A stretch of 64,000 nt of DNA. Origin: Paraconexibacter algicola (lineage in GTDB: Bacteria; Actinomycetota; Thermoleophilia; Solirubrobacterales; Solirubrobacteraceae). The position numbers and the translations under genes were made by a program. Under the pieces are notes generated by a model that saw only the letters and a program-made list of their open reading frames with translations, had not been told where the DNA came from and searched no databases. The DNA is taken from positions 1,612,001 through 1,676,000 of the forward strand of contig NZ_PYYB01000001.1 in NCBI RefSeq assembly GCF_003044185.1. Reading direction: 5' to 3'. Below, in pieces: positions 30,043 through 49,795 of the stretch. Each line of letters begins with the position of its first letter. Position 1 is the first letter of the stretch.

Positions 30043-30048
30043 CGCTCC

Positions 30049-31704
30049 ATGAGCGCAACGAAGCGGCGGAGCATCACCAAGACCCACGAGCGCATCGCGC
30101 AGCTCGGTTGGGACGCGACGTACCACGACCCCGTCGCGCGATACCCGACGCGGTACCACATCCCCGCGAAGTCGAAGGACCCGATGAAGCAGATCATGCG
30201 GGAGTACCTCCCCATGGAGCTGGAGAAGGACGATCGGGTCTACGGTGGGCACGACGCAGCAGTGCGCGCCGCGATGCCCGAGAAGGTGTCCGAGCGGTGG
30301 CTCGAGGTCCTCAAGCCGTTCCTCTGCGTGACGAACTACGCGGAGATCGGCGCCGGACGCTGCATGTCGATGCTCATCGACGCGATTCCCTCCAACGAGC
30401 TGCGCAACGGCTACCACGTGCAGTACGTCGACGAGGTCCGCCACACCGGCATGCAGATGGCCCTCGCGCGCTGGTACACCAAGCATGCCCCGGATCCCGG
30501 CGGATGGAACGGGCTGATGAGCGCGATGCCGCGGGACATCTTCACGTTGGGCGGGATGAACTTCGTCAACCACTTCATGGTGGGCGACCCGATCCAGTGC
30601 GCGTTCGCGCTCCAGGTCGTCGCCGAGACCGCGTTCACCAACGTCGCGTTCGTCGCGCTGCCGGACGTCGCCGCGCGCAACGGGGACTTCACGCTCCCCA
30701 CCACGTACCTGAGCGTGCAGTCCGACGAGGCTCGGCACATCTCCAACGGCTACGCCACGCTGCTGACCGTCCTGCAGGACGACCGCAACGTCCCGTTCAT
30801 CGAGCGTGACCTGCAGCAGGCGTGGTGGATCAACCACGCCTTCCTCGACGTGTTCAGCGCGATCGTCATGGAGTACTTCTCGCGTGACCGGTCGGACCCC
30901 GAGTCGTTCCTGGACAAGTGGGACCGCTGGATCCGCGACGACTGGTACCGCAGCTACATCTGCAAGCTCGGCGGCATGGGGCTGACACTCGACCCGACGA
31001 TCTTCGAGCGCGCCCGTGAGCGCATCGTCAAGGGCATGCACCACAAGATCGCGATGCTGGCCTTCGCCACCTGGCCGATGCACTTCTGGCGCTTCGACGG
31101 GCTCGACGAGAAGGACTTCGAGTGGTTCGAGCGCAAGTACCCCGGCTGGTACGACGAGTACGGGTTCTTCTGGGAGGCGTTCCGGGAGCTCTCCGACCCG
31201 AAGGACCGCTCGCTGCTCCTGTCGGGCCTCATGAGCGACGCCCCGCCGTTCTGCTGGACCTGCACCATGCCGTCGGTCATCGACGAGGACATCTGCCATC
31301 GGGTGGTCGACGATCGCACGCGCTTCTACTGCTCCCGCGAGTGCCGCTGGATGGACGAGTCCAACCCCGGCAGGTACACCGGTGACCGCAACTACTTCGA
31401 CCGCTACCACGGCATGGACATCGCCGACGTCGTCCAGGAGCTCGGCTTCGTGCGACCGGACGGCCGGACGCTGACCGCGCAGCCGCACCTGAGGCAGGAC
31501 GACAAGTGGACGCTGGACGACCTCCGCGCGGTCGGGCTCACGATCGAGTCGCCCAACATCAACACGGCCAAGTCGATGGGCCTGCCGTCCGGCGACTGGT
31601 CGGCGGCCTTCAAGGCCGGCGTGAACGTCGCGACCGGTCGCAACGGCGGGCCCGGGCCGGTCAAGAACGCGTCGATCGACCTGCCGTACCCGACCGCGGG
31701 CTGA
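30049..31704 (+). CDS. Soluble diiron monooxygenase large (alpha) hydroxylase subunit, PrmA/MimA-like
   Basis: A 551-residue catalytic subunit that hydroxylates a hydrocarbon or aromatic C-H bond with O2 at a carboxylate-bridged diiron centre. The full ligand set is visible: Glu99, Glu129-x-x-His132 (DEVRH), Glu193 (AETAF) and Glu227-x-x-His230 (DEARH). The C-terminal part carries a YHS-like metal motif (FCWTCTMPS ... YCSRECRWM). The DPMKQIMREYLPMELEKDDR and WWINHAF segments and the gene order alpha-reductase-beta-coupling match the propane/phenol monooxygenase group (prmABCD, mimABCD). Substrate range in that group includes propane, acetone, phenol and larger compounds, so propane itself is not established here. 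Confidence 0.9.
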   Translation: MSATKRRSITKTHERIAQLGWDATYHDPVARYPTRYHIPAKSKDPMKQIMREYLPMELEKDDRVYGGHDAAVRAAMPEKVSERWLEVLKPFLCVTNYAEIGAGRCMSMLIDAIPSNELRNGYHVQYVDEVRHTGMQMALARWYTKHAPDPGGWNGLMSAMPRDIFTLGGMNFVNHFMVGDPIQCAFALQVVAETAFTNVAFVALPDVAARNGDFTLPTTYLSVQSDEARHISNGYATLLTVLQDDRNVPFIERDLQQAWWINHAFLDVFSAIVMEYFSRDRSDPESFLDKWDRWIRDDWYRSYICKLGGMGLTLDPTIFERARERIVKGMHHKIAMLAFATWPMHFWRFDGLDEKDFEWFERKYPGWYDEYGFFWEAFRELSDPKDRSLLLSGLMSDAPPFCWTCTMPSVIDEDICHRVVDDRTRFYCSRECRWMDESNPGRYTGDRNYFDRYHGMDIADVVQELGFVRPDGRTLTAQPHLRQDDKWTLDDLRAVGLTIESPNINTAKSMGLPSGDWSAAFKAGVNVATGRNGGPGPVKNASIDLPYPTAG

Positions 31705-31718
31705 TCGAGGTCGCTCCT

Positions 31719-32759
31719 GTGCCCCGCGTGTACTTCGAGCCCATCGGCGAGGAGATCGACTGCGACGAGGACGAGACCGTCCTGGACGCGTCGTTCCGTC
31801 AGGGCTACTCGCTCGTCCACGGCTGCCGCGAGGGCCAGTGCTCGGCCTGCAAGTGCTACCTGCTCGAGGGCGAGGTCGCGCTGAAGCGGTACTCGACGTT
31901 CGCGCTCTCGGACTCTGAGCAGGACTCGGGCTACACGCTCCTGTGCCGGGCCATGCCCGAAGAGGACCTCACCGTCGAGCTCCTGCACTTCGATCCGGAC
32001 AACTACCGGTCGGAGTTCGTGATCTCGACGATCGAGACGACCGTCCACGCGGTCGAGCCGTTGTCGCACGACATCTCACGCGTGGTGGTCCAGCTCCCCG
32101 AGGGTGCGGAGTTCCCGTATCGCCCGGGGAGCTACGCCGACATCCATGTGCCAGGCGACGCAGAGGCCCGCCGGTCCTTCTCCATGGCCAACCTGCCCGG
32201 GGAGGGACGGCTCGAGTTCATCGTGAAGCGCTACCCGGGCGGGGCGATCTCCGGGCTGCTGGAGGACGAGTCGATCGCCGGCGGCGTGTCGCTGACCGTC
32301 ACCGGCCCGTACGGAGCGTTCGCGTTGCGCGACAATGACCGTGCCGTCCTGATGATCGCGGGCGGCTCGGGCATGGCGCCCCAGCTGGCTCTCCTGCGCC
32401 ACATGGTCCAGGAGGGCATCGACCGCCCGACGCGGTTCTTCTACGGCGCACGCGGCACCCGCGACCTCATCGAGATCGCCGAGCTCGAGCGCCTCGGCGC
32501 CGCGCTCCCGAACTTCCGCTTTGTCCCGGTCCTGTCGGACGCAGACGACGACGCGGAGTGGAGCGGCGAGGCCGGGATGGTCCACGAAGCGGTGGCGCGC
32601 TACCTCGCCGACGGCGAGCTGGGCTCCGACTTCGAGGCGTACCTCTGCGGTCCGCCACCGATGGTCGAGGCCGCTCAGGAGATGCTCGAGAGCTTCGGCA
32701 TCGACGTCTCGCAGATTCACTTCGACAAGTTCACGACGTCGGTCGCCGTAGGCGGCTAG
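31719..32759 (+). CDS. Monooxygenase reductase component, PrmB-like
   Basis: A 346-residue NADH reductase that feeds electrons to the diiron hydroxylase. It has an N-terminal plant-type [2Fe-2S] domain with Cys36, Cys41, Cys44 and Cys76, an FAD domain (RRSFSMAN) and an NAD domain (GGSGMAP, ending in LCGPPPMV). The frame stays open upstream, but the prmA stop at 31702-31704 and a GAGG ribosome site 8 nt before GTG 31719 fix the start. The spacing to its neighbours (14 bp on each side) shows tight operon structure. Confidence 0.92.
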   Translation: MPRVYFEPIGEEIDCDEDETVLDASFRQGYSLVHGCREGQCSACKCYLLEGEVALKRYSTFALSDSEQDSGYTLLCRAMPEEDLTVELLHFDPDNYRSEFVISTIETTVHAVEPLSHDISRVVVQLPEGAEFPYRPGSYADIHVPGDAEARRSFSMANLPGEGRLEFIVKRYPGGAISGLLEDESIAGGVSLTVTGPYGAFALRDNDRAVLMIAGGSGMAPQLALLRHMVQEGIDRPTRFFYGARGTRDLIEIAELERLGAALPNFRFVPVLSDADDDAEWSGEAGMVHEAVARYLADGELGSDFEAYLCGPPPMVEAAQEMLESFGIDVSQIHFDKFTTSVAVGG

Positions 32760-32773
32760 GACAGGAGACACCC

Positions 32774-33841
32774 ATGGGTACGCCCCCCGTCAAGAAGGTC
32801 GACGACGGAACCGCCCGTCGCGGTGACGACGCCGAGCGGCAGTTCAACTGGTTCACGCCCGTCAAGCGTCGCGCCTCGGTCTACGAGGACGTCACGGTCG
32901 ACACACAGCCGTCGACGAGCCGACACCTCGATCGTGGGTGGTCGATGTCGTTCGACGGGGTCCACGGCGTGTGGAGCGACGACTCGACCCGTCTGGAGGT
33001 CGGCGACTGGCACGACTTCCGCGACCCGGGCCAGTGGTGGGAGAGGACCTTCTTCCAGGTCGGCAGCCAGTACGAACGGCAGATCGACAGCGCGGTCCGC
33101 CAGGCCACCGTCGACGGACTCTTCGAGGACTTCGACCCGGCATGGGTCGAGTTCCTGCGAGCCAACCTCCAGGTGCCCGCCTTCGTGCAGCACGGGCTCT
33201 GGCTCGCGGTCGCCTCTGCCGGACGCGACACGCTCTCCGACACCATCACCCATGCGGTCGTCATGCAGGCGGCGCTCAAGCAGCGGTTCGCGCAGTCGAT
33301 CATCCTGTACGCGCTCGACCTCGAACCCCACCTCGGGTCCATCCCGATGGACACGGCCCGCGACCGCTGGCTCGAGCATCCCGCCTGGCAGCCCACCCGC
33401 GAGTACATCGAGCGCCTCCGCACGATCGTCGACTGGGGTGAGACGCTCGTCGCCGTCAACGTCTGCTTCGAACCGATCTGCGGCGTCCTCGTGCAGCGCG
33501 AGCTCGGGATGCGGGCGGCCAGCGCCAACGGCGATACCGTCACGCCGGTCCTGGGACGGGTGGCGCAGCTCGAGTGGGAGTGGCTGAACACCTGGACCTG
33601 CTCGCTGATGAAGCTCGTGCTGGACGACGCCGAGCACGGCGAGCGCAACCGCGAGCTCGTCGCCGGCTGGATCGACGACTGGATGCCCCGCTCCTTCGCC
33701 GCAGCCGAAGCGCTGGCAGGCATGGTCGACGAGCTCCCGGTCGCGATCGACTTCGAGGCGTCCCGCGGCCGGACGCTGGCTCAGGCCAGGACCTTCTGGG
33801 ACGCGGCAGGCGTCGGCGACATGGTCTCGGTGCCCGCATGA
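32774..33841 (+). CDS. Soluble diiron monooxygenase small (beta) hydroxylase subunit, PrmC-like
   Basis: A 355-residue structural subunit that should form the (alpha-beta)2 hydroxylase with the product of 30049-31704. Family marks include FNWFTPVKRRASVYEDVTVD near the N-terminus, FVQHGLWLAVASAGRD, QSIILYALDLEPHLG and VNVCFEPICGVLV. ATG 32774 has AGGAGA 6 nt upstream. The 294-residue orphan at 5850 is a shorter homologue that lacks the N-terminal 80 residues. The stop codon overlaps the ATG of the coupling protein. Confidence 0.9.
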   Translation: MGTPPVKKVDDGTARRGDDAERQFNWFTPVKRRASVYEDVTVDTQPSTSRHLDRGWSMSFDGVHGVWSDDSTRLEVGDWHDFRDPGQWWERTFFQVGSQYERQIDSAVRQATVDGLFEDFDPAWVEFLRANLQVPAFVQHGLWLAVASAGRDTLSDTITHAVVMQAALKQRFAQSIILYALDLEPHLGSIPMDTARDRWLEHPAWQPTREYIERLRTIVDWGETLVAVNVCFEPICGVLVQRELGMRAASANGDTVTPVLGRVAQLEWEWLNTWTCSLMKLVLDDAEHGERNRELVAGWIDDWMPRSFAAAEALAGMVDELPVAIDFEASRGRTLAQARTFWDAAGVGDMVSVPA

Positions 33842-34185
33842 GCTTCGGGGCCATGGAGGAGAGCGGCGACGACCGCGTCGGCGGCGAGTACGACTACGTC
33901 GGAATCGTCATGGCGCGCAGCGCCGAGGGCGACGCGGTCGCCGACGTCCTGCGGGAGCAGGATGGTGTCGAGGTCGTGCAACAGCCGTCCTTCTGGGACA
34001 TCCGCCGCAAGCACCGCCTGGAGATCGACTTCGACGAGATCTCCGAGGAGCTCGGATCCCCTGTCGACGCGTACACGATCCAGCACGAGATGTCGACGCA
34101 CTACGGCCGCATGGTCGCCACGGACGACAAGCTCATCCTCTTCGGTGACCCCATCGAAGCCGCGCGCTTCCTGGACAGCGAGTAA
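33838..34185 (+). CDS. Monooxygenase coupling (effector) protein, PrmD/MmoB-like
   Basis: A 115-residue cofactor-free effector that docks on the hydroxylase and tunes O2 activation. Family features are VGIVMARSAEGDAVADVLRE, the central VVQQPSFWDIRRKHRLEIDF and the motif DAYTIQHEMSTHYGRMV. It starts at ATG 33838, overlapping the stop of the small-subunit gene (ATGA). It completes the four-component enzyme. The next gene, an SCP2 protein, begins 4 bp later, which is not part of the standard prm/mim set. Confidence 0.9.
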   Translation: MSFGAMEESGDDRVGGEYDYVGIVMARSAEGDAVADVLREQDGVEVVQQPSFWDIRRKHRLEIDFDEISEELGSPVDAYTIQHEMSTHYGRMVATDDKLILFGDPIEAARFLDSE

Positions 34186-34189
34186 CGAG

Positions 34190-34666
34190 ATGGTCTTGAA
34201 CGAGGGGCCCGGACGGCGGACGCCGCCCACAGCAGACCATGCCCAGGACGTCTACGACGCCTTCGTCTCGATCATGACGCAGGCGATGAACGACTCGGAG
34301 CTGACCAGACGCCTCGCGTCGGCCGAGGTCGTCGCCAACATCCACCTCCGCGACTCGCCCCAGGACCTGGTTCTGGCACTGCACCTGGACCGCACGCCGA
34401 TCGAGTTGACGGCCGGCGCGGTGCCCGGAGCCGAGGTCGATCTCTTCATCGACACCGACGACGTGATGCGGTTCTGGACCGGCGAGATCAACCTCGCCAT
34501 GCGCATCCTCCACGGCGACATCGCCTACGAGGGCCCGGTTCGTAAGCTGCTGCGGGTCGTCCCGATCGCCCGCCGCCTCGTCTCCGACTTCCAGGCTCAG
34601 GCTGCCGCGTCGGGATTGCTCGACGTGTCGGCCACCACCACGACCAGAACTGAGGAACCTCGATGA
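34190..34666 (+). CDS. SCP2-like protein embedded in the monooxygenase operon
   Basis: A 158-residue SCP2-fold protein. The core is IHLRDSPQDLVLALHLDRTP, AEVDLFIDTDDVMRFWTGEI and AMRILHGDIAYEGPVRKLLR. It shares the EGPVRK-LR-VP end with the protein at 4103. It is sandwiched between the coupling-protein gene (4 bp) and a GMC oxidoreductase gene (ATGA overlap), so it is translated with the oxidation machinery. It may deliver a poorly soluble substrate or carry the product onward. The N-terminal 25 residues are polar and the C-terminal tail is Thr-rich. Confidence 0.85.
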   Translation: MVLNEGPGRRTPPTADHAQDVYDAFVSIMTQAMNDSELTRRLASAEVVANIHLRDSPQDLVLALHLDRTPIELTAGAVPGAEVDLFIDTDDVMRFWTGEINLAMRILHGDIAYEGPVRKLLRVVPIARRLVSDFQAQAAASGLLDVSATTTTRTEEPR

Positions 34667-36249
34667 ACTTCGATTACGTGATCGTCGGCGCCGGCTCGGC
34701 AGGCGCCGTCCTCGCTGCACGGCTCTCGGAGGACCCGTCCGTCACCGTCGCGCTGCTGGAGGCCGGCGGGGACGACAACGACATGGAGGTGTCGATCCCG
34801 GCCGCCTTCGGCGCGCTGTTCAAGGGCCGCCGCGACTGGGACCTCAGCACCGAGCCCGAGCCGCAGATGAACGGACGACGGTGCTACCTGCCGCGCGCGA
34901 AGATGCTCGGCGGCTGCAGCTCGATGAACGCCATGGTGTACATCCGCGGCAACCGCGCGGACTACGACGAGTGGGCCGAGATGGGCGCGGAGGGCTGGGG
35001 CTACAAGGACGTCCTGGAGTACTTCAAGCGCTCGGAGGACAACGAGCGCGGCGAGGACATGTTCCACGGGACCGGCGGGCCGCTGCCCGTCCGCGAGAGC
35101 CGCTCGATGCATCCGCTGGCCACCGCGTTCGTCGAGGCCGCCAAGCAGGCCGGCCACGAGGAGAACCCGGACTTCAACGGCGCCCGGCAGGAGGGCGTCG
35201 GCCGCTACCAGACCACGCAGCGCGACGGCATGCGCGCGAGCACCGCGGCGGCATTCCTGCATCCGGTCGAAGGCCGCCCGAATCTCACGGTCATCACCGA
35301 CGCGATGGTCACCGACGTAATGATCGAGGACGACCGCGCGCTGGGGGTGCACGTCGACCACCCCGAGCACTTCCAGATCCTCGCCGACCGCGAGGTCATC
35401 CTGTGCGCCGGCGCGTACCAGACGCCGCAGATCCTGATGCTCTCGGGCATCGGCCCGGCCGAGCATCTCACCGCGCTGGGCCTCGACGTCATCAAGGACC
35501 TCCCGGTCGGGCAGGGCATGCAGGACCACTGCATGACGCTGATCAACTGGACGACCGACGTCGAGTCGCTCCTGACCGCGATGACCGACGAGAACGTCGA
35601 GAGGATGAGCGTCGACGGCGAGGGGCCGCTGACGTCGAACATCGCCGAGGCCGGCGGCTTCGTCCGCACACGGCCCGGTCTGGACGGTCCGGACTGCCAG
35701 TTCCACTGTGCGCCTGTGGCGTTCTTCGAGGAGGGTCTCGGGGTGACCGACAAGCACGCCGTCGCGTTCGGACCCGGGGTCGTGAAGCCCACGAGCCGCG
35801 GGTCAGTGACTCTCCGGAGCGCGAGCCCGTTCTCCAAGCCGCGCATCGTGCACAACTACATCGGCACCGACGAGGACCGGCAGACCATCCTGGCCGGCAT
35901 GCGGATGGCGCTGGAGATCGCCGCGCAGCCCGCGATGCAGGCCATCATCACCGGTGAGCTGCGCGCCCCGTCCAGGGACGCCACCGACGACGAGCTGATG
36001 GCGTTCGTCGCCGAGAACACCCAGACGATCTACCACCCGACCTCGACGGCAGCGATCGGCCAGGTGGTCGATCCCCGACTGCGGGTCTACGGCATCGAGG
36101 GCCTGCGCGTCGTGGACGCCTCGGTGATGCCCACCATCGTCCGTGGCAACACGAACGCTCCGGTCATCATGATCGCCGAGAAGGCCGCCGACCTCGTCCG
36201 CGAGGACGCCGCCGCGGCGGTTGCGACTCCCGCAGCCGTGTCCGGCTGA
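34663..36249 (+). CDS. GMC-family FAD-dependent alcohol oxidoreductase
   Basis: A 528-residue paralogue of the enzyme at 27455. The FAD motif is YVIVGAGSAGAVLAARLSED. GMC signatures appear in KMLGGCSSMNAMVYIRGN and GAYQTPQILMLSGIGPAEH. The active-site pair is the His in IYHPTSTAAIG and the Asn in RGNTNAPVIMI, the usual His-Asn arrangement; the paralogue has His-His. It should oxidise the alcohol made by the diiron monooxygenase. Its ATG overlaps the SCP2 stop. A strong 13-bp hairpin follows 21 bp after its stop. Confidence 0.9.
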   Translation: MNFDYVIVGAGSAGAVLAARLSEDPSVTVALLEAGGDDNDMEVSIPAAFGALFKGRRDWDLSTEPEPQMNGRRCYLPRAKMLGGCSSMNAMVYIRGNRADYDEWAEMGAEGWGYKDVLEYFKRSEDNERGEDMFHGTGGPLPVRESRSMHPLATAFVEAAKQAGHEENPDFNGARQEGVGRYQTTQRDGMRASTAAAFLHPVEGRPNLTVITDAMVTDVMIEDDRALGVHVDHPEHFQILADREVILCAGAYQTPQILMLSGIGPAEHLTALGLDVIKDLPVGQGMQDHCMTLINWTTDVESLLTAMTDENVERMSVDGEGPLTSNIAEAGGFVRTRPGLDGPDCQFHCAPVAFFEEGLGVTDKHAVAFGPGVVKPTSRGSVTLRSASPFSKPRIVHNYIGTDEDRQTILAGMRMALEIAAQPAMQAIITGELRAPSRDATDDELMAFVAENTQTIYHPTSTAAIGQVVDPRLRVYGIEGLRVVDASVMPTIVRGNTNAPVIMIAEKAADLVREDAAAAVATPAAVSG

Positions 36250-36270
36250 ACCACGCGGACACCCAAACGC

Positions 36271-36299
36271 GTGCGATGCGGCGCTTCGCCGCATCGCAC
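36271..36299 (+). terminator. Perfect 13-bp hairpin inside the catabolic operon
   Basis: GTGCGATGCGGCG (36271-36283) and CGCCGCATCGCAC (36287-36299) pair perfectly around a 3-nt CTT loop in the 107-bp gap between the GMC oxidoreductase and the acyl-CoA synthetase. No T-run follows. It is a terminator or partial terminator that would separate expression of the oxygenase part from the CoA part; an mRNA-stabilising 3' end is also possible. Confidence 0.6.
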
Positions 36300-36356
36300 T
36301 GTGGCGCTCGGGCAGCGCAACGCACGACCTATCCGAACCCGGCCCAGGAGCCTCCA

Positions 36357-38011
<1,655 letters not shown>

Positions 38012-38015
<4 letters not shown>

Positions 38016-38920
38016 GCTCACCCAACACAACCGGTGCTGGGCGGTACACCACCGTCTTCCGGGACGGCCTGTTCGACGGGCAGGTGATCGTCGTCACCGG
38101 TGGCGGCAGCGGGATCGGCAGGTGCACCGCCCACGAGCTCTGCCGCCTCGGTGCGTCGGTAGCGCTCATCGGCCGGCGCGTCGAGCGACTCGAGGCGGTG
38201 CGCGGCGAGCTTGCCGTGCACGGCGGCGAAGCGAGCGTCCACGCTTGCGACATCCGCGACGAGGACGCCGTCCGCGCGAGCGTCGCGGCCGTCCGTGCCG
38301 AACACGGCAGAATCGACGGACTCGTCAACAACGCGGGCGGACAGTTCCCTGCGCCGCTCGAGAAGATCTCGGCGAACGGCTGGGACGCCGTCGTCCGGAC
38401 CAACCTCACCGGCGGGTTCCTCATGGCCCGCGAGGTCTACTCGCAGCAGCTGCACGCGACCGGCGGGTCGATCGTCAACATCATCGCCGACATCTGGGGA
38501 GGCATGCCGACCATGGGCCATTCCGGCGCGGCCCGCGCCGGAATGCTGAACCTCACCGAGACCGCCGCCTGCGAATGGGCCGCCGCCGGCGTTCGCGTCA
38601 ATGCGGTCGCCCCTGGCTGGATCGCCTCGAGCGGCTTCGACACCTACGACGAGGCCATGCAGGCCGAGTTGCGGCGGCTCAAGGACAAGGTCCCGTTGGG
38701 CCGGTACGGCACCGAGGCCGAGGTGTCCGCCGCGATCGTCTTTCTGCTGTCACCCGCAGCGGCGTTCATCTCCGGGAGCTGTGTGCGGGTCGACGGCGCC
38801 GTGCCCAACAACCGACACACCTGGAACGGGCCGGTAAGCACGCGGTCCGTGCCCTTCGATGGCTTCCCCCTCGCCACGATGCCGACCGCGCTGCGCGAGT
38901 ACGGCAGCGACGACTCTTGA
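38012..38920 (+). CDS. PECR/DECR-like short-chain dehydrogenase (enoyl-CoA reductase type)
   Basis: A 302-residue SDR. The cofactor motif is VTGGGSGIGRCTAHELC and the structural motif is NNAGG. The usual Tyr-x-x-x-Lys is absent: the region reads GHSGAARAGMLNLTE, matching trans-2-enoyl-CoA reductase (PECR) and 2,4-dienoyl-CoA reductase, which also lack the classical Tyr. It therefore probably reduces the C=C of an enoyl- or dienoyl-CoA with NADPH. It starts at GTG 38012, overlapping the synthetase stop. The acyl-CoA dehydrogenase follows after 13 bp. An unsaturated or terpenoid substrate for the pathway would fit. Confidence 0.85.
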
Positions 38921-38933
38921 CCAAGGAGCAGTG

Positions 38934-40115
38934 ATGACCACAGCAGCGATTCCGAACCTCGGGCTGGTCCCGACCGACGAGGAGACCGCGATCCGTGAAG
39001 CGGTCGCCGCGATCTGCCGCCGGCACGGCGACCGCTACGCGCGGGACTGCTACGAGCGCGACGAACCTCCCCGCGAGGTGTGGCGCGACCTCGCCGAGGG
39101 CGGCTACGTGGGAATCGGCGCCGCGCCCGAGTGGGGAGGCGGCGGCCTCGGCATGGCCGGCCTCTCCGTGGTGGTGGAGGAGAGCGCCGCGAACGGGGTC
39201 GCGGGGCTGATGCTTGTGCTGAGCTGCTCCATGGCCGGCACGATCCTCGAACGTCACGGATCGGATGAGCAGCGTGACCGCTGGCTGCGCGGCATCATCG
39301 ACGGCTCCATCAAGCTCGCGTTCGCCATCACTGAGCCGGACGCGGGGTCGAACTCCCACAACCTCCGCAGCCGCCTGGTCCGGCAGGGCGACGGGTCGTT
39401 CCTGCTGCGCGGCCAGAAGACCTACATCTCGGGCGTGGAGGACGCGGAGGCGGTGTTGATCGTGGCCCGCGTGCAGGACAGCGACGGCACGCTCGGGCCG
39501 CCCTCGCTGTGCATCGTGGACACCGACACCCCGGGGTTCACGCGCGAGGTGATCCCGATGCCGTATCTCGGGCCGGAGAAGCAGTGGACCCTGTACTTCG
39601 ACGATGTCCCCGTAGAGGCGTCCAGGCTCGTCGGTGGTGAGGACTCGGGGCTCAAGGTGGTCTTCGATGCGCTCAACCCCGAACGCATCACGATCGCCGC
39701 GATGCTCTGCGGCACCGCCCGTCTGGCCCTCCGCAAGGCCGTGGCCTACGCGAACGACCGCACCGTGTGGAGCTCGCCGATCGGCGCCCATCAGGCGGTT
39801 GCCCATCCGCTGGCGAAGGCCAAGATCGAACTCGAGCTCGCCCGCCTCATGACGCAGAAGGCAGCGGCGCTCTTCGACGCCGGCGCTCCCGAGGCGGGAG
39901 AGGCCTCGAACATGGCCAAGTACGCGGCGGCGGAAGCCGCGACCCATGCCGTCGATGTGGCCATCCAGACGCACGGCGGCAACGGGCTGTCCATCGAGTA
40001 TGGCGTCAGTGACCTCTGGTGGCTCACGCGACTCATGCGGATCGCGCCGGTGAGCGAGCAGATGATCCTCAACCACGTCGCGCACCACTCGCTGGGTCTC
40101 CCGAAGTCCTACTGA
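38934..40115 (+). CDS. Acyl-CoA dehydrogenase
   Basis: A 393-residue flavoenzyme that introduces a 2,3 double bond into an acyl-CoA. Family marks are FAITEPDAGSNSHNLRSR (FAD/substrate loop), GQKTYISGVEDA and TLYFDDVPVEASRLVG. The C-terminal HGGNGLSIEYGVSDLWW and RIAPVSEQMILNHVA segment carries the probable catalytic Glu. AAGGAG lies before ATG 38934. It ends the operon of acyl-CoA synthetase, SDR and dehydrogenase. Immediately after its stop comes the operator-promoter of the next operon. Confidence 0.92.
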   Translation: MTTAAIPNLGLVPTDEETAIREAVAAICRRHGDRYARDCYERDEPPREVWRDLAEGGYVGIGAAPEWGGGGLGMAGLSVVVEESAANGVAGLMLVLSCSMAGTILERHGSDEQRDRWLRGIIDGSIKLAFAITEPDAGSNSHNLRSRLVRQGDGSFLLRGQKTYISGVEDAEAVLIVARVQDSDGTLGPPSLCIVDTDTPGFTREVIPMPYLGPEKQWTLYFDDVPVEASRLVGGEDSGLKVVFDALNPERITIAAMLCGTARLALRKAVAYANDRTVWSSPIGAHQAVAHPLAKAKIELELARLMTQKAAALFDAGAPEAGEASNMAKYAAAEAATHAVDVAIQTHGGNGLSIEYGVSDLWWLTRLMRIAPVSEQMILNHVAHHSLGLPKSY

Positions 40116-40118
40116 AAT

Positions 40119-40136
40119 CACCGATCGGTGTAGAAT
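40119..40136 (+). promoter_or_regulatory. CACCG-AT-CGGTG operator with abutting -10 box
   Basis: A perfect 12-bp palindrome (40119-40130) is followed at once by TAGAAT (40131-40136). The ATG of the thioesterase gene is 7 nt further, so the transcript is probably leaderless and the repressor would cover the promoter. The same operator appears at 44694-44705 and, with a CT centre, at 52252-52263. The form is typical of TetR-family operators. Confidence 0.7.
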
Positions 40137-40143
40137 TCCGCAG

Positions 40144-40593
40144 ATGAGCGCTGAAGCACACACGCAGTGGGTCGACCGGTTCGACGCGGACATCGCGGAG
40201 GCGATGCGCGCGATGTCGAACGACATCGGTGGCCTGCCGCAGTATCTGGGCATCGAGCTCATGGAGATCGGGCCCGGAACGGTGGACGCACGGGCGACCC
40301 TCGGGGAGGAGCTGCTGACGCCGTCGGGCAACGTCCACGGCGGCTGCCTGGCATCCATCCTCGACCACATCACGGGCGCGGTGATCTATCCGCTGATGCC
40401 GCAGGGGTACTGGGGGGCGACCACCGAGCTGAAGCTCAACTACATCCGCCCGGTCCAGGCGGGCATCGTGGAAGCGACCGCGAGCGTGCTCGCGATGACG
40501 AACCGCAGTGCGGTCGTCCGGGGTGAGATCCTCGCCGGGGGACGGGTCGCCTGCGCGGCGCAGGGCACGATCACGATCGTGGCGCCCCGATGA
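40144..40593 (+). CDS. PaaI-like hotdog-fold thioesterase
   Basis: A 149-residue single-hotdog protein. The active-site loop is GNVHGGCLASILDHITG, with the His-Gly-Gly and following Asp typical of PaaI/YbgC-type acyl-CoA thioesterases. The central helix and sheet follow (LKLNYIRPVQAGIVEATASV). It probably hydrolyses an acyl- or aryl-CoA. It is the first gene of a four-gene operon (40144-42726) that sits behind its own operator-promoter, and it overlaps the BtrH-like gene by ATGA. A second thioesterase of the same superfamily closes the operon. Confidence 0.85.
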   Translation: MSAEAHTQWVDRFDADIAEAMRAMSNDIGGLPQYLGIELMEIGPGTVDARATLGEELLTPSGNVHGGCLASILDHITGAVIYPLMPQGYWGATTELKLNYIRPVQAGIVEATASVLAMTNRSAVVRGEILAGGRVACAAQGTITIVAPR

Positions 40594-41603
40594 CCGTGGG
40601 CGCCCCGGAGTTCACCCACGCGCTCGCCGGCCACTGCGCGTCGGGAAGTCTGCGCGACGTCCTCGCCCACCGGGGCCTGGACTTCGGCGCGGGACCGCTG
40701 TCGGAGGGCATGTGCTTCGGCCTGGGCAGCGGCCTCGGGTTCCTGTACGCCGACGTGCCCGCCGAGACGCCGGCAATCTACGTCGTCGGCCGTACCGAGG
40801 CGCTCGAAGAGGCCTTCGCCGAGAACCTCGGGATCGACCTGGACGTGCGGGAGACCGATGACCGCGCGCGAGCAGCGGCGTGGCTCGACGACGAGCTGCA
40901 GCGCGGAAGACCGCCGATCGTGTGGTCGGACATCGCCGAGCTCGAGTACCTGCGGGTGCGGATGTCCAACACGCGGCACGCGATCGTTATCGCGGGCGTG
41001 GACCGCGAGGCCGGTGTGGCGTGGATCGCGGACAACGACCGTGAGGAGCTGCAGCCGTGCTCGCTGGCGTCGCTCGCGCGCGCCCGGGACTCGCGCGGGT
41101 TCCCGGGACGCAACCGCAACCGGACCTTCGTGTTCGACTGGCCGACGAGCCTGTCCGACCCGGCCGGCGCGGCGCGGGCGGCGATCACCGGAGCGGTCGC
41201 CAACATGCGCAACGGCGGGACGAGGCTCGGCGGCTTGGACGCCCCGGCCGGCCTGCAGGGGGTCGAGGCGTTCACACACGCCTACCGCCGTTGGCCGGAC
41301 GACCACGGCGACGCACTGCCCGGGGTCCTCGCGGCCCTGTCGATCTTCATCGTCAAGGCCGGGACGGGCGGAGCGCTCTTCCGGTCGCTCTGGGCCGAGT
41401 TCCTGCACGACATGGCGAGCCTCCTCGACGACCCGGGACTCCGCGCCGCGGCCGTGCAGGCCGATGGGCTCGCCGCCGGGTGGAGGGAGCTCGCCGCCGT
41501 CGCCCGGGCCGCAGACCATGCTGCGGGGATCCCGATCGCCGACCGGCTCCTCGACGAGGAACGCGCACAGGTCGAGCTGCTCGAGACCTGGCTGGAGCGC
41601 TGA
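40590..41603 (+). CDS. BtrH-like (BtrH_N / DUF4872-type) protein, putative acyltransferase
   Basis: A 337-residue protein related to BtrH, the enzyme of butirosin synthesis that moves an acyl side chain from a carrier protein to an amine. The N-terminal segment has the conserved Cys (AGHCASGSLRDVL) and the Gly-rich CFGLGSGLGFLY. The central part reads SDIAELEYLRVRMSNTRHAI, with a probable catalytic His, and ADNDREE. The C-terminal half is helical with GGALFRSLWAEFLHDMA. A 340-residue paralogue lies at 51207 under the same operator. The acyl donor and acceptor are unknown; the nearby thioesterases and transglutaminase-like gene suggest acyl/amide chemistry. Confidence 0.75.
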   Translation: MTVGAPEFTHALAGHCASGSLRDVLAHRGLDFGAGPLSEGMCFGLGSGLGFLYADVPAETPAIYVVGRTEALEEAFAENLGIDLDVRETDDRARAAAWLDDELQRGRPPIVWSDIAELEYLRVRMSNTRHAIVIAGVDREAGVAWIADNDREELQPCSLASLARARDSRGFPGRNRNRTFVFDWPTSLSDPAGAARAAITGAVANMRNGGTRLGGLDAPAGLQGVEAFTHAYRRWPDDHGDALPGVLAALSIFIVKAGTGGALFRSLWAEFLHDMASLLDDPGLRAAAVQADGLAAGWRELAAVARAADHAAGIPIADRLLDEERAQVELLETWLER

Positions 41604-42247
41604 TGTCGGCCGCTTCCCGCCCCGGCGTCGAGGACGTCGTCGTCACGTCGTTCCTCGATCACGACCATCCTGCTGTCGGCGAGGCGGTCAGCGCCGCCGT
41701 CAGCGGTGCCGACGGTGACGCGGCGACGCTCTCGGCCTGGTTCGCCGCCGTCCGTGACGCCATCCGCTACGACCCGTACCGCCTGCCGACCTCCCCGGAG
41801 GAGTACCGCGCAAGCAGCGTGCTGGCGGAGCGCAGGGCCTACTGCGTGCCCAAGGCGGTGCTGTTCGCCGCCGGCTGCCGTGCGCTCGGCTTCCCGGCGC
41901 GACTCGGGTACGCCGACGTGCGCAACCACCTGCAGACCGAGCGGCTGCGCGAGGCGATGGGGACCGATCTGTTCCGCTACCACGGCTACGCGGCCGTCTG
42001 GAACCAGGGACGCTGGGTGAAGGCGAGCCCAGCGTTCAACCGCGAGCTCTGTGCGCGCGCCGGCGTGGAACCACTGGACTTCGACGGCGAGCACGACGCA
42101 CTGATGCATGCGTTCACCGGGGACGGGCAGCGCTACATGGAGTACGTGGTCGACCATGGCCTGCGTTCGGATCTGCCGCTCGACGAGATCTTGACGGCCT
42201 ATCGCGAGGCGTATCCGGCGCTCGTCGCGTTCGAGGGCGAGCGGTGA
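41603..42247 (+). CDS. Transglutaminase-like cysteine protein
   Basis: A 214-residue protein with the papain/transglutaminase core. The Cys sits in ERRAYCVPKAVLFAAGCRAL, the His in FRYHGYAAVW and the third position probably in WVKASPAFN. Such small bacterial transglutaminase-like proteins cleave or form amide bonds. ATG 41603 overlaps the stop of the BtrH-like gene (TGATG) and the stop overlaps the next GTG, so all four genes are translationally coupled. The role with the BtrH-like acyltransferase is unknown; peptide or amide release is possible. Confidence 0.78.
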   Translation: MSAASRPGVEDVVVTSFLDHDHPAVGEAVSAAVSGADGDAATLSAWFAAVRDAIRYDPYRLPTSPEEYRASSVLAERRAYCVPKAVLFAAGCRALGFPARLGYADVRNHLQTERLREAMGTDLFRYHGYAAVWNQGRWVKASPAFNRELCARAGVEPLDFDGEHDALMHAFTGDGQRYMEYVVDHGLRSDLPLDEILTAYREAYPALVAFEGER

Positions 42248-42726
42248 GGCCGACGTCGCTGGGGCACATCCCGGCGCATCACGACAACTGCTTCGGGTGC
42301 GGACCCGGCAACGCAGCCGGGCTGCGGATGCAGATGCAGGCAGTCGACGGCGAGGTGCATGCGGACCTGACGCTCGACGGGCGGATGGAGGGCGCGCCCG
42401 GGTTGGCGCACGGCGGCGCGATCGCGGCCGCACTGGACGACCTGTTCGGCGGGGTGCTGGTGCTGCTCGAGACTCCCGCCGTCACCGCGCGGCTCAACGT
42501 CGAGTACCGGCTCCCGGTCCCGCTGCACACGCCACTGCACCTGGTCGCGCGATGCACGGCGACCGAAGGCCGCAAGCTGCACATGGCCGGCACGATGTCC
42601 GCCGGAGAAGCGATCGTCGCAGAGGCCTCGGCGATGTTCGTCCGCGTGGAGATCGCCCACTTCGAGGCGTCGGGTGTCCCCGTCCCCGACGCGTGGCGCT
42701 CGTGGGGCGGAGCAGCGCGCGGCTGA
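42244..42726 (+). CDS. Hotdog-fold thioesterase, second in operon
   Basis: A 160-residue PaaI/4HBT-like protein. The N-terminal Cys-rich CFGCGPGNAAGLRM is followed by the active-site loop GLAHGGAIAAALDDLFGG and the strand ARLNVEYRLPVPLHTPLHLV. This FGCG-NP type is common in actinobacterial thioesterases of the THEM4-like group. It starts at GTG 42244, overlapping the previous stop. It closes the operon controlled by the operator at 40119. Decayed metallo-beta-lactamase sequence follows directly. Confidence 0.83.
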   Translation: MRPTSLGHIPAHHDNCFGCGPGNAAGLRMQMQAVDGEVHADLTLDGRMEGAPGLAHGGAIAAALDDLFGGVLVLLETPAVTARLNVEYRLPVPLHTPLHLVARCTATEGRKLHMAGTMSAGEAIVAEASAMFVRVEIAHFEASGVPVPDAWRSWGGAARG

Positions 42727-42866: not shown

Positions 42867-44312
42867 TCAGACCGCCGACGTCTCGGCGGTCGTGTGTACC
42901 CCCGGATGGCGGACGCCGGCCTTCGGGGTCAGCTGGACCATCATCTTCTCGTAGCCCTTGACGAAGTTCGACTGCACGTAGGTCGGCTCGCCGACCACGT
43001 CGATGCGGTCGAAGCGCTCCAGCAGCTCCTCCCAGAGGATCCGCAGCTGCATCTCGGCAAGCCGGTTGCCCATGCAGCGGTGCACGCCGAACCCGAAGGA
43101 CATGTGGTTGCGCGCGTTCTTGCGGTCGATGATCAGGGCGTCCGCGTTCTCGAACTTGGACTCGTCGCGGTTGCCGGACGCGTACCACATGACGACCACG
43201 TCGCCCTTGCGGATGAACTGCCCGCCGAAGTGGACGTCCTCCTTGGCGACCCGTCGCATGTAGGCGAGCGGGGTCTGCCAGCGGATGATCTCCGACACCA
43301 TGTTCGGAATCAGCGACGGGTCAGCCTTCAGCTTCTCGAACTGGTCCGGGTACTGGTTCAGCGCGAAGACGCCGCCGGTCATCGAGTTGCGCGTGGTGTC
43401 GTTTCCACCGATGATCAGCAGCGCCAGGTTGCCGATGAACTCCATCGGCTTCTTGATGAGGTCCTTCGTGTCCTCCGACGTCTGCATCAGCGTGATCAGG
43501 TCGAACCCGTCGGGCTCACCCGCCGCTCGCCGCGCCGCCTTGTCATGCCACAGCGCCGTGAAACTCCGGGCCAGCTCCACGCCGGCCGTGAAGAGATCGT
43601 CGAGGTGCGTGGTTCCGCCCGTCGCCTCAGCGGAGCCGCCCATGGCATCGGACCAGCGCGTGAGCTCACGGCGCCGCTCGTAGGGGTAGTCCAGCAGGGT
43701 CGCCAGCATCCGGCCCGTGATCTCGATGGAGACGCGCTCGACCCAGTCGAACGGCTCGTCGGTCGGCAGGCCGTCGAGCACCTCCTGGACCCGCTCGCGG
43801 ATGAGGCCCTCCATCTCCTTGAGGTTGCGCGGCGCGACGACACTCTGAACGGACTTGCGCTGCACGTCGTGCTTGGGCGGGTCCATCGCGATGAACATCT
43901 CCGCCGGCATGGGCGGGGTACCGAGGACGATGTAGGGCTCGGCCGAGAAGACTTCCGGGTTGGAGTCGACGGCCTGGATGTCCTCGTAGCGCGTGATCGA
44001 CCAGAACGGACCGAACGGGCTGTCGGCGAGGTAGTGGACCGGGGCCTCCTCGCGCAGCCGCGCGAAGTACGGGTACCACTTGCCCTGCCGGTTCATGAAC
44101 GGGTTGCTCACGTCGATCTCGGCGAGCGGCACGTCGGCCGGGTTCGGGATCGGCGCCTCGGTAAACGCCAGCGGCGTCTCCAGGCCGGCCCGCCGCTTCG
44201 CCTTCTTCACCGCGTGGGCGGCCTGCACCTGCCGGTCGACGGGAATGGTCGCCTGGACCTTGTCGGTCACGATGGTCTTCGCCCGGTCAAGAACGTTGCT
44301 GGTCGTCGTCAT
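42867..44312 (-). CDS. Cytochrome P450, CYP153-like alkane hydroxylase
   Basis: A 481-residue P450. The I-helix region LLIIGGNDTTRNSMTGG and the heme loop FGFGVHRCMGNRLAEMQLRI (axial Cys413) are the marks of the CYP153 family, soluble terminal alkane/fatty-acid hydroxylases. The N-terminal extension of about 45 residues before NPFMNRQGKWYPYF is also seen in CYP153. The ferredoxin that should reduce it is encoded just upstream (45 bp). No ferredoxin reductase is adjacent. It would hydroxylate a medium-chain alkane or a terpene-like chain at the terminal carbon. It is controlled by the operator at 44694-44705. Confidence 0.88.
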   Translation of the reverse strand: MTTTSNVLDRAKTIVTDKVQATIPVDRQVQAAHAVKKAKRRAGLETPLAFTEAPIPNPADVPLAEIDVSNPFMNRQGKWYPYFARLREEAPVHYLADSPFGPFWSITRYEDIQAVDSNPEVFSAEPYIVLGTPPMPAEMFIAMDPPKHDVQRKSVQSVVAPRNLKEMEGLIRERVQEVLDGLPTDEPFDWVERVSIEITGRMLATLLDYPYERRRELTRWSDAMGGSAEATGGTTHLDDLFTAGVELARSFTALWHDKAARRAAGEPDGFDLITLMQTSEDTKDLIKKPMEFIGNLALLIIGGNDTTRNSMTGGVFALNQYPDQFEKLKADPSLIPNMVSEIIRWQTPLAYMRRVAKEDVHFGGQFIRKGDVVVMWYASGNRDESKFENADALIIDRKNARNHMSFGFGVHRCMGNRLAEMQLRILWEELLERFDRIDVVGEPTYVQSNFVKGYEKMMVQLTPKAGVRHPGVHTTAETSAV

Positions 44313-44357: not shown

Positions 44358-44678
44358 CTACATCTGGAACTCGGGCAGGCGGACCGTGAGCCCGTCGAGG
44401 CCCTCGGTCGCCCGCAGCTGACACGCCAGGCGCGAGTTAGGCACGCACTCCGGTGACATCTCGACCATTGCGCTCTCCTCCTCGGACCGCCTCCCCGTGG
44501 TCTGGATCCACTCCTCATCGACGATGATGTGGCACGTCCCGCACGACGCCTCGCCGCCGCAATCGCCGTCGATCCCCGGAACGCCGCTCCCGGTCGCCAG
44601 GGCCATCAGCGACTCGCCGTCGACCAGTTCGACCTGATGTGCGGTGCCGTCGTGCTCGACGAAGGTGATCTTTCCCAT
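44358..44678 (-). CDS. [2Fe-2S] ferredoxin, adrenodoxin type
   Basis: A 106-residue electron carrier for the adjacent P450. The cluster ligands follow the C-x5-C-x2-C-x(n)-C pattern: CGGEASCGTC and a fourth Cys in RLACQL. The N-terminus (MGKITFVEHDGTAHQVELVD) and the C-terminal LPEF are typical of putidaredoxin/CYP153 ferredoxins. The ATG at 44678 is 7 nt from a TATTCT -10 box, so the mRNA is leaderless. It is first in the ferredoxin-P450 operon. Confidence 0.92.
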   Translation of the reverse strand: MGKITFVEHDGTAHQVELVDGESLMALATGSGVPGIDGDCGGEASCGTCHIIVDEEWIQTTGRRSEEESAMVEMSPECVPNSRLACQLRATEGLDGLTVRLPEFQM

Positions 44679-48208: not shown

Positions 48209-48829
48209 GTGCGCGCCGCCGGCGATCTCACCCCCAAAGGCGCCCTGCGCGTGTCGGAGATCCTGGACGCGGCGCTGCGCTGTCTGGCGCGCGACGGGTA
48301 CGCCGCGACGTCGATCCAGCGCGTCGCCGACGAGGCTCGTCTGCACAAGCGGGTCGTCCTCTACTACTACGGGTCGCGCGAGAACCTGTTCGACGCGGTG
48401 GTGCGAACGTTGGGCGATCGGTTGTTCGACCGTCTGGAGGAGGCGCTCACCGGACTCGAGGAGCCGGCCGACATCGTGGCCACGGGGTACACCGAGCTCT
48501 GGGCGGCGATCACGACCGATCGCGCGCTCCTGGTCGCCTGGTTCGGCCTGCGCGCCGAGGCGATCACCGATCCGGTCCTCCAGGTCACCGCGAGCTATCT
48601 CGCCGACCGGCTCCGCGCGCTGATCAGCGGACTGATCGACGACGCTGTGGGCCGCGGCCGGGTCCTGGTCATCAGCCGAACCTCGCTGGAGGTCCTGATC
48701 GTCGCCGGGACTCAAGGACTCGTCCTGGACTACCTCGAGCGCGGCGAGACGCCCGAGCTCCAAGCCGGCATCAGAGACTTCCAGGGGTGGCTCACGACGG
48801 TGAGCACTCCACCGCGGAACCGGAGCTGA
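48209..48829 (+). CDS. TetR-family repressor, divergent from the MMPL exporter
   Basis: A 206-residue TetR regulator. The helix-turn-helix is RVSEILDAALRCLARDGYAA, TSIQRVADEARLHKRVVLYY and YGSRENLFDAVV. It is a close paralogue of the protein at 52344 along its whole length (both begin VRAAG-LT-KG and share LHKR-VLYYYG-RE-LFDAVVR-LGDRLFD). GTG 48209 lies 8 nt after a TAGGCT -10 box, so the mRNA is leaderless. It probably represses the MMPL exporter and itself. It is convergent with the metallo-beta-lactamase gene. Confidence 0.88.
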   Translation: MRAAGDLTPKGALRVSEILDAALRCLARDGYAATSIQRVADEARLHKRVVLYYYGSRENLFDAVVRTLGDRLFDRLEEALTGLEEPADIVATGYTELWAAITTDRALLVAWFGLRAEAITDPVLQVTASYLADRLRALISGLIDDAVGRGRVLVISRTSLEVLIVAGTQGLVLDYLERGETPELQAGIRDFQGWLTTVSTPPRNRS

Positions 48830-48865: not shown

Positions 48866-49795
48866 TCACCCGCCCTCGGACGAGGCGGGCGACGCCGGTG
48901 CCGACCAGCGGCCGTCCGGCATCTCGGTCGCCTCGTCGTGGCGACGAAGATGCTCGAGGTGGGCGTAGGTCTCCATCAGCGCGAGCATCCGGTCTGCGCG
49001 ACTGTCGGCACGCTTGCCGAACGTCGCGGCGCTGAGCTCGGCGAGCGGTGTCGGCCCTCCGGCGAGGGCTTCGCGCAGATGCTCGAGTCGCCTGGCGTGG
49101 TGGTCGAGCAGCTCGGAGGCGCGGCTCCGGGCGTCGGCGTACGAGTCGCCGTGCGCGGGCAGCACGAGGGTGACCGGCAGATCGGCGACGCGCCGCAGCG
49201 AGGCGAGGAAGTCCGCGAGCGCGTCGGACCCGTCGAGGGAGGGCTGCACGTTGGGCGTGTAGCCGGGCAGCAGGAGGTCTCCGCAGATCAGCACGCCGTC
49301 GGCGGCGCGGTAGAGGCAGATGTGGGCGGGGTCGTGTCCGGGGGTGTGCAGCACCGCCCAGTCGCCGAACGTCTGACCGTCGCGAACGGGGATGACCTCC
49401 GGCACGTCGCCGACAAGCCCGGTGAAGCCGGCGAACGCCTCGGTGACAGCGGCGGAGTCGAGGAACCCCGGGGCCGCGGGGCCGAACGGAGCGCCGCCGG
49501 CGATGGCGAAGGTCCGCTCGATCTCCGGGTGGGCGTGGACCGCTGGAGCGAGGTCGGTCGCGATTCCCCAGTGGTCGAGATGGCCGTGCGTGACCAGCAC
49601 GGCCGGCTGGTGGACGTCGGCGGCGGCGAGGCCGGCGTGCAGCGCCGCATCCGAGCCCTTGGCGCCGGTGTCGACCACCAGCGCACCGTCGGGGGTGTCC
49701 AGGACGTGGATGTGGAGGTGATCGGGGGATCCCAGGGCGAGCGGGACGGTGAACCGCACGACCCCAGGAGCAGGGCGGTCGAGCCGGTGACTCAC
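48866..49795 (-). CDS. Metallo-beta-lactamase-fold hydrolase
   Basis: A 309-residue hydrolase. The metal-binding motif is THGHLDHWG (HxHxDH), with the further ligands His in HTPGHDPAHICLY, Asp in CGDLLLPG and His in LPAHGDSY. The C-terminal 80 residues are a helical MBL-associated domain (ADSRADRMLALMETYAHLEH). It cleaves an ester, thioester or lactone; the LACTB2-like end fits thioester or nucleic-acid hydrolases. GTG 49795 overlaps the stop of the MFS gene (GTGA). It is the last gene of the BtrH-like/MFS/MBL operon. Two fragments of a second copy lie at 42749 and 44734. Confidence 0.87.
   Translation of the reverse strand: MSHRLDRPAPGVVRFTVPLALGSPDHLHIHVLDTPDGALVVDTGAKGSDAALHAGLAAADVHQPAVLVTHGHLDHWGIATDLAPAVHAHPEIERTFAIAGGAPFGPAAPGFLDSAAVTEAFAGFTGLVGDVPEVIPVRDGQTFGDWAVLHTPGHDPAHICLYRAADGVLICGDLLLPGYTPNVQPSLDGSDALADFLASLRRVADLPVTLVLPAHGDSYADARSRASELLDHHARRLEHLREALAGGPTPLAELSAATFGKRADSRADRMLALMETYAHLEHLRRHDEATEMPDGRWSAPASPASSEGG

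What the first reader, a model, noticed from the sequence alone, without database searches (positions are those of the whole stretch)
40144..42726. Candidate undescribed acyl/amide system: thioesterase, BtrH-like, transglutaminase-like, thioesterase
Four translationally coupled genes combine two hotdog thioesterases with a BtrH-like acyltransferase and a small transglutaminase-like Cys protein. BtrH is known from butirosin synthesis, but no carrier protein or antibiotic genes are seen here. The BtrH-like paralogue at 51207 instead travels with an exporter and a metallo-beta-lactamase hydrolase. The set could conjugate and release an acyl group, for example protecting or tagging an oxidised hydrocarbon product with an amine.
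Basis: inference. Interest (0 to 1): 0.65.

Follow-up and report, generated by a model that had tools for sequence, protein, structure and literature searches.

The report
Amide-synthetase-like genes in alkane-oxidation operons
Four overlapping genes at the end of a bacterial hydrocarbon-oxidation operon encode two cysteine acyl-transfer enzymes and two thioesterases, and the same partners recur beside alkane-oxidising P450 and acyl-CoA ligase genes in many actinobacteria, which points to an unrecognised acyl- or amide-handling step in hydrocarbon metabolism.

Summary
The four genes exist as described. They end a 16-gene co-directional run (26199-42726) that also carries a soluble di-iron monooxygenase, two GMC oxidoreductases, an acyl-CoA ligase, an SDR and an acyl-CoA dehydrogenase. 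A CYP153A-type alkane hydroxylase with its ferredoxin lies convergent to them. In 75 BtrH-like loci from 27 genera, immediate neighbours are enriched for a TE2-type hotdog thioesterase (15.4% of genes, against 0.3% at 6-9.5 kb), P450s and acyl-CoA ligases. The transglutaminase-like protein (TGL) is rarer, but in one mycobacterial genus all 16 genomes with BtrH carry it, and 14 of 15 CYP153A genomes carry both. In several mycobacteria the order is AraC | Fdx-CYP153A-FdR-SCP2-like-ligase-ADH-BtrH-TGL. The BtrH-like model matches amide synthetase CcbD, closthioamide CtaG and AziU3 over its full length (Z 21-24), with Cys16-His130-Asp148 conserved; no carrier protein was found nearby. Best reading: a CoA-dependent Cys acyltransferase pair working on hydrocarbon-derived acyl-CoA, probably amide-forming. 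Acceptor, product and direction are unknown. The protein families are known; this combination and its alkane-operon setting appear undescribed in the papers searched.

The parts
40144..40593 (+). TE1, PaaI-like hotdog (4HBT) thioesterase
   Evidence: PF03061 52.7 bits, TIGR00369 69 bits; 60-66% homologues in L073 and L022
40590..41603 (+). BtrH1, BtrH_N + DUF4872 papain-fold acyltransferase-like protein; putative triad C16-H130-D148
   Evidence: PF14399 and PF16169 over cut-off; model pLDDT 92.1; Z 20.6-24.4 to CcbD, CtaG, AziU3; C16 in 104 of 109, H130 in 111 of 112, D148 in 112 of 112
41603..42247 (+). TGL, small transglutaminase-like Cys protein; C81 and H127 invariant, third residue uncertain (S/T142, N146)
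   Evidence: PF01841 53.7 bits; model pLDDT 88, transglutaminase and arylamine N-acetyltransferase folds; conservation 47 of 47
42244..42726 (+). TE2, PaaI-like hotdog with N-terminal CxxCG motif, HGG and D65 conserved
   Evidence: PF03061 28.7 bits; family conservation in 54 sequences; most frequent immediate neighbour of BtrH
38934..40115 (+). acyl-CoA dehydrogenase, 28 bases upstream of TE1
   Evidence: PF00441, PF02771, PF02770 over cut-off
38012..38920 (+). short-chain dehydrogenase
   Evidence: PF13561 and PF00106 over cut-off
36357..38015 (+). acyl-CoA ligase (AMP-binding); homologues 44-67% identical beside BtrH or TGL in other genera
   Evidence: PF00501 269.7 bits; neighbourhoods
34663..36249 (+). 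GMC oxidoreductase, presumed alcohol dehydrogenase
   Evidence: PF00732 and PF05199 over cut-off
34190..34666 (+). SCP2-like lipid-carrier homologue (weak); homologue lies in the mycobacterial CYP153A-BtrH-TGL operon
   Evidence: PF02036 sub-threshold here, 21.5 against 21.3 bits in the mycobacterial homologue; operon position
30049..34185 (+). soluble di-iron monooxygenase, four components (alpha, reductase, beta, coupling protein)
   Evidence: PF02332, Fer2/FAD/NAD domains, PF02332, PF02406
26199..29978 (+). CYP125/CYP124-like P450, second GMC oxidoreductase and GAF-LuxR regulator at the start of the run
42867..44312 (-). CYP153A-type alkane hydroxylase P450, convergent to TE2
   Evidence: PDB sequence match 669 bits to 8b2p alkane hydroxylase, 463 bits to CYP153A7 3rwl
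44358..44678 (-). 2Fe-2S ferredoxin partner of the P450
   Evidence: PF00111 38.2 bits
51207..52229 (-). BtrH2, paralogue 55% identical to BtrH1, overlapping an MFS transporter (49792-51210) and followed by an MBL hydrolase (48866-49759)

Best explanation
The four genes are the last steps of a hydrocarbon-oxidation operon. The monooxygenases hydroxylate a hydrocarbon, GMC and other dehydrogenases oxidise the alcohol, and the acyl-CoA ligase makes an acyl-CoA (inferred from families and order). BtrH1 is then proposed to take the acyl group from CoA onto Cys16, as CcbD does from its carrier protein, and to hand it, with His130 and Asp148, to an amine, giving an N-acyl product. TGL would be a second Cys-His acyl-transfer enzyme on the same acyl pool, either a second acylation or the reverse reaction. 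The two hotdog thioesterases would release misloaded or surplus acyl-CoA. Shown: gene content, gene overlap, conserved association, predicted fold and residue conservation. Inferred: CoA as donor, an amine as acceptor, amide formation, the roles of TGL and the thioesterases.
For: BtrH1 matches AziU3, CtaG and CcbD over 286-309 residues at Z 20.6-24.4, against 13.6 for the next, papain-domain-only hit. The PDB titles list CtaG C11A, H128A, D144N and CcbD C19S variants, spaced like C16, H130, D148 here. CcbD forms an amide by a ping-pong Cys mechanism and accepts fatty acyl groups (PMC12945683). Triad conserved in over 100 relatives. No carrier-protein motif in the window, and one, in a 399-residue protein, among genes of the surveyed loci, which favours acyl-CoA as donor. 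Acyl-CoA ligase is 11.4% of immediate neighbours against 1.2% at 6-9.5 kb, TE2 15.4% against 0.3%, P450 14.6% against 3.2%. BtrH-TGL 4-base overlap in the mycobacterial CYP153A operon. In mycobacterial genus g102, BtrH in 16 genomes, all with TGL; 14 of 15 CYP153A genomes have both. TGL fold resembles arylamine N-acetyltransferases and the amide synthase GdmF (Z about 9.7) as well as transglutaminases.
Against: No assay, product or amine is known, and no amine-supplying enzyme was identified in the run. A shared fold does not fix the reaction: AziU3, the best structural match, is not known to me as a simple amide synthetase. BtrH homologues also occur without TGL (most loci) and without P450. 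TGL's catalytic Asp position, as judged by motif, is Ser/Thr. The catabolic neighbours (acyl-CoA dehydrogenase, 3-hydroxyacyl-CoA dehydrogenase beside an unlinked TGL) fit a hydrolytic or beta-oxidation role as well. The carrier-protein test used one motif (PS00012) and did not cover the rest of the genome.
Confidence: 0.45

Rival explanations
1. Catabolic hydrolysis: BtrH and TGL act with the hotdog enzymes as Cys hydrolases on acyl-CoA thioesters or on amide-containing substrates, freeing CoA or acids during beta-oxidation of a poorly metabolised (branched, cyclic or omega-oxidised) hydrocarbon.
For: Neighbours are catabolic: acyl-CoA ligase, acyl-CoA dehydrogenase, SDR, ALDH, and MaoC and thiolase in Alloalcanivorax. 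A BtrH-annotated protein is abundant in acetone-grown Desulfotomaculum geothermicum within a CoA-pathway cluster (PMC8084838). Papain and transglutaminase folds include hydrolases.
Against: Four thioester hydrolases in one operon would be redundant; the closest full-length structural relative with a reaction described in a paper read here, CcbD, makes an amide.
Confidence: 0.27
2. Ester formation: BtrH transfers the acyl group to an alcohol made by the monooxygenase, giving wax-ester-like or acyloxy lipids that are stored or exported by the nearby MMPL and MFS transporters.
For: BtrH-like proteins are encoded with dialkylresorcinol pigment clusters (PMC3949708; NCBIfam DarH model). A PlsC-type acyltransferase lies near BtrH in Nocardioides and Aeromicrobium. 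MMPL genes are near BtrH in several genera.
Against: BtrH1 scores 88.6 bits against the DarH cut-off of 300. CcbD, the structural relative with a described reaction, uses an amine. No wax-ester synthase family was seen among the genes tested.
Confidence: 0.13
3. Loose passengers: the genes are a mobile accessory cassette for detoxification or resistance, next to hydrocarbon genes by chance or shared mobility, without a step in the pathway.
For: BtrH2 travels with an MFS exporter, MBL hydrolase and TetR regulators; BtrH is patchily distributed, 35 of 396 phylum genomes.
Against: Association with ligase, P450 and TE2 persists over 27 genera with different gene orders, and presence of BtrH and TGL tracks CYP153A within a genus.
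Confidence: 0.1

Closest known systems
CcbD/LmbD lincosamide condensing enzymes
   Same: Two-domain papain fold over full length (Z about 21), Cys nucleophile and His in comparable positions; CcbD accepts fatty acyl groups (PMC12945683)
   Different: Use a carrier-protein-bound aminoacyl donor in antibiotic synthesis; third residue Glu; no carrier protein found here and the context is hydrocarbon oxidation
CtaG of closthioamide biosynthesis
   Same: Full-length fold match Z 22-23 and Cys-His-Asp with similar spacing (variants C11A, H128A, D144N in the PDB titles)
   Different: About 10% identity; antibiotic pathway; reaction not tested here
BtrH of butirosin biosynthesis
   Same: Same Pfam pair BtrH_N and DUF4872
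   Different: BtrH takes a side chain from carrier protein BtrI to an aminoglycoside (own knowledge; carrier-protein acyltransferase role also in PMC10318531); no carrier protein or aminoglycoside genes seen here
DarH, BtrH-related acyltransferase (NF053550)
   Same: Detectable homology over most of the length
   Different: 88.6 bits against a cut-off of 300; no pigment genes seen
Arylamine N-acetyltransferase and geldanamycin amide synthase GdmF
   Same: TGL shares the fold at Z about 9.7-10 with Cys-His
   Different: TGL matches PF01841 alone in the Pfam scan, is shorter, and its substrate is unknown
CYP153A alkane-hydroxylase operons (AraC-Fdx-CYP153-FdR)
   Same: The same AraC, ferredoxin, P450 and reductase genes head the mycobacterial BtrH-TGL operon; such genes respond to alkanes in Amycolicicoccus and Dietzia (PMC3743902, PMC12472514)
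   Different: The passages read from those papers do not mention BtrH or TGL; in the window the P450 is convergent and the co-directional hydroxylases are the di-iron monooxygenase and another P450

Membership tests
BtrH/CcbD/CtaG-type papain-fold amide synthetases | BtrH_N and DUF4872 domains | tested here: met
   132.8 and 108.4 bits, over cut-offs 29.7 and 28
BtrH/CcbD/CtaG-type papain-fold amide synthetases | two-domain papain plus helical fold over the full length | tested here: met
   Z 20.6-24.4 over 286-309 residues to CcbD, CtaG, AziU3, on a model of pLDDT 92.1
BtrH/CcbD/CtaG-type papain-fold amide synthetases | Cys-His-Asp/Glu triad | tested here: met
   C16 in 104 of 109, H130 in 111 of 112, D148 in 112 of 112 relatives; geometry not measured, and one search pattern behind the loci included the Cys motif
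BtrH/CcbD/CtaG-type papain-fold amide synthetases | acyl carrier protein as donor | tested here: inconclusive
   PS00012 motif absent from window genes and found once, in a 399-residue protein, among the surveyed loci; rest of genome not searched
BtrH/CcbD/CtaG-type papain-fold amide synthetases | amide bond formation | not testable with these tools
   needs an enzyme assay
DarH acyltransferase (NF053550) | NCBIfam cut-off 300 bits | tested here: not met
   88.6 and 81.4 bits
Transglutaminase-like superfamily | PF01841 domain and fold | tested here: met
   53.7 bits, cut-off 23; Z 13.5 to 3isr and 9-11 to transglutaminases
Transglutaminase-like superfamily | Cys-His-Asp triad | tested here: inconclusive
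   C81 and H127 in 47 of 47; the motif position expected to hold Asp is Ser/Thr, N146 in 44 of 47 is an alternative
PaaI-like hotdog thioesterases (TE1, TE2) | 4HBT domain | tested here: met
   52.7 and 28.7 bits, cut-off 20.6
CYP153A (neighbouring P450) | closest solved sequences are CYP153 alkane hydroxylases | tested here: met
   669 bits to 8b2p, 463 bits to CYP153A7 3rwl, against 242 bits for CYP125

The most novel reading that the evidence does not exclude
Actinobacterial alkane-oxidation operons carry a dedicated, carrier-protein-free amide synthetase pair (BtrH plus TGL) that converts hydrocarbon-derived acyl-CoA into an N-acyl product, a branch of alkane metabolism not described before and a non-antibiotic role for the BtrH fold.
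Probability: 0.33. Interest if true: 0.8.

Novelty: new variant of a known kind. Interest (0 to 1): 0.58.

Why it matters
BtrH-type enzymes are known mainly from antibiotic and pigment biosynthesis. Finding them repeatedly with CYP153A, acyl-CoA ligase and thioesterase genes in many actinobacteria, and beside acyl-CoA ligases in Alloalcanivorax, suggests that hydrocarbon degraders run an unnoticed acyl-transfer step. The product could be a surfactant, a storage or a protective lipid, and the enzymes could be useful CoA-dependent amide catalysts. The question is directly testable by deletion and metabolomics in cultivable mycobacteria that carry the operon.

Tried and rejected
Sequence searches of solved structures with BtrH1, TGL and their profiles gave no meaningful relatives; fold comparison was needed. 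Literature: DUF4872 in no paper, CYP153 with transglutaminase and alkane in no paper, butirosin with alkane only in papers that look unrelated by title. A second CYP153A copy in the same genome has no BtrH nearby. TGL far from BtrH exists in several genomes; the 18 BtrH-linked TGLs lie inside one 30-row clade with SH-aLRT 95, with 4 unlinked, and none of the 16 rows outside it is linked (some rows chosen through BtrH). Antibiotic biosynthesis was set aside because no carrier-protein motif was found and the neighbours are catabolic.

Full report
What is there. The window holds four genes ending at 42726: TE1 (40144-40593), BtrH1 (40590-41603), TGL (41603-42247) and TE2 (42244-42726), with overlaps of 4, 1 and 4 bases. 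Domains are 4HBT, BtrH_N plus DUF4872, Transglut_core and 4HBT, each over the Pfam cut-off. They end a 16-gene co-directional run from 26199 with gaps of at most 107 bases: a P450, a GMC oxidoreductase, a LuxR-type regulator, a four-component soluble di-iron monooxygenase, an SCP2-like protein (weak), a second GMC oxidoreductase, an acyl-CoA ligase, an SDR and an acyl-CoA dehydrogenase. Convergent to TE2 lies a P450 whose closest solved sequences are CYP153 alkane hydroxylases with a 2Fe-2S ferredoxin. Upstream is a region with MlaD/Mce, ABC and MMPL domains in the genes tested. The genome belongs to the genus of Paraconexibacter antarcticus, judged by the matching 5,138,448-base contig of genome G007, listed as same genus.

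Co-occurrence. BtrH_N is found in 43 of 151 relatives and 35 of 396 phylum genomes (E thresholds differ), and three times in this genome. TGL relatives occur in 11 of 151 relatives and 6 of 396 phylum genomes. A profile scan gave 77 BtrH loci with organism names. In the 75 with a called BtrH gene, over 27 genera, partner families within 6 kb were: the TE2 hotdog family in 17 genera, P450 in 14, acyl-CoA ligase in 12, acyl-CoA dehydrogenase in 11, SDR and LLM in 8 each, TGL in 6. Against a ring at 6-9.5 kb in the same loci, immediate neighbours are enriched: TE2 15.4% against 0.3%, P450 14.6% against 3.2%, ligase 11.4% against 1.2%, TGL 3.3% against 0.3%. Genus names were assigned by hand from record titles (several unnamed MAGs count as separate genera), several loci are near-copies within a genus, and neighbour labels come from similarity to window genes, so the percentages are descriptive.

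Mycobacteria. In M. frederiksbergense LB501T (L159) and close relatives the order is AraC | ferredoxin, CYP153A, ferredoxin reductase, SCP2-like, acyl-CoA ligase, Zn-ADH, BtrH, TGL, then an LLM monooxygenase, with BtrH and TGL overlapping by 4 bases. Other arrangements are P450-TGL-ligase-ACAD-BtrH in mycobacteria, and TGL-ALDH-SDR-BtrH-ligase in Aeromicrobium. Among 148 relatives of G529, within genus g102, BtrH is in 16 genomes, strong TGL in 18 and CYP153A in 15. All 16 BtrH genomes have TGL and 14 of the 15 CYP153A genomes have both. For TGL against CYP153A the hypergeometric chance is 4e-6 even with the smallest possible genus size of 38; shared ancestry and physical linkage make this an overstatement of independent evidence. 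CYP153 genes respond to n-alkanes in Amycolicicoccus, and an AraC regulator activates the CYP153 promoter in Dietzia (PMC3743902, PMC12472514).

TGL phylogeny. In a tree of 46 TGL rows, the 18 BtrH-linked rows fall in one 30-row group with SH-aLRT 95, with 4 unlinked and 8 on short contigs; none of the 16 rows outside it is linked, and 10 of those have full flanks. Some rows entered through a BtrH search, so the linked share is biased upward; the clustering is still clear.

Structure and residues. The BtrH1 model (pLDDT 92.1) matches AziU3, CtaG and CcbD over the full length at Z 20.6-24.4, with the next hit, a C39-like peptidase, at 13.6. C16, H130 and D148 are conserved in 104 of 109, 111 of 112 and 112 of 112 relatives. 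CcbD is a ping-pong Cys amide synthetase that takes acyl groups from a carrier protein and accepts fatty acyl groups (PMC12945683). The TGL model (pLDDT 88; nine-sequence alignment) has a transglutaminase fold, also shared with arylamine N-acetyltransferases and GdmF at Z about 9.7-10. C81 and H127 are invariant in 47; the third residue is uncertain.

Reading. The likeliest mechanism is a CoA-dependent Cys acyl transfer on a hydrocarbon-derived acyl group, amide formation being the best guess from the fold. Donor, acceptor and direction are inference. Hydrolysis and ester formation remain possible. The absence of a carrier-protein motif and the steady company of an acyl-CoA ligase are the main reasons to prefer CoA.

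Novelty. The protein families are known. The combination with CYP153A and acyl-CoA ligase operons was not found in the papers searched, which cover open-access papers only. One earlier hint: a BtrH-annotated protein is abundant in acetone-grown Desulfotomaculum geothermicum (PMC8084838).

Noticed in passing
window 8067-21618: A run of genes with ABC, MlaD/Mce and MMPL domains in the three tested, probably an Mce-type lipid or steroid importer upstream of the hydrocarbon genes
   Followed up: partly
window 26199-27452 and 42867-44312: Two P450 types in one island: a CYP125/CYP124-like one and a CYP153A-type one; a second CYP153A copy 87% identical lies elsewhere in the genome without BtrH nearby
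   Followed up: partly
window 48209-48829 and 52344-52961: Two TetR regulators 68% identical to each other, near BtrH2; relatives of the first often lie beside BtrH-TE2 pairs in other genomes
   Followed up: no
window 54563-55606: Luciferase-like monooxygenase family gene, 64-82% identical across Solirubrobacterales and repeatedly near BtrH, TE2 and P450 genes
   Followed up: no
L250 11989 onward: Weak TGL match (29 bits) directly after BtrH in a mycobacterial CYP153A operon, possibly a decayed or divergent TGL, while a full TGL lies about 13 kb away
   Followed up: no
L025 9402-10112: Second TGL in the same genome, divergent from a 3-hydroxyacyl-CoA dehydrogenase, without BtrH
   Followed up: partly
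L033: Third BtrH copy of the genome, 66% identical to BtrH1, with P450, GMC, MMPL, TE2 and LLM genes, a partial second copy of the island
   Followed up: partly
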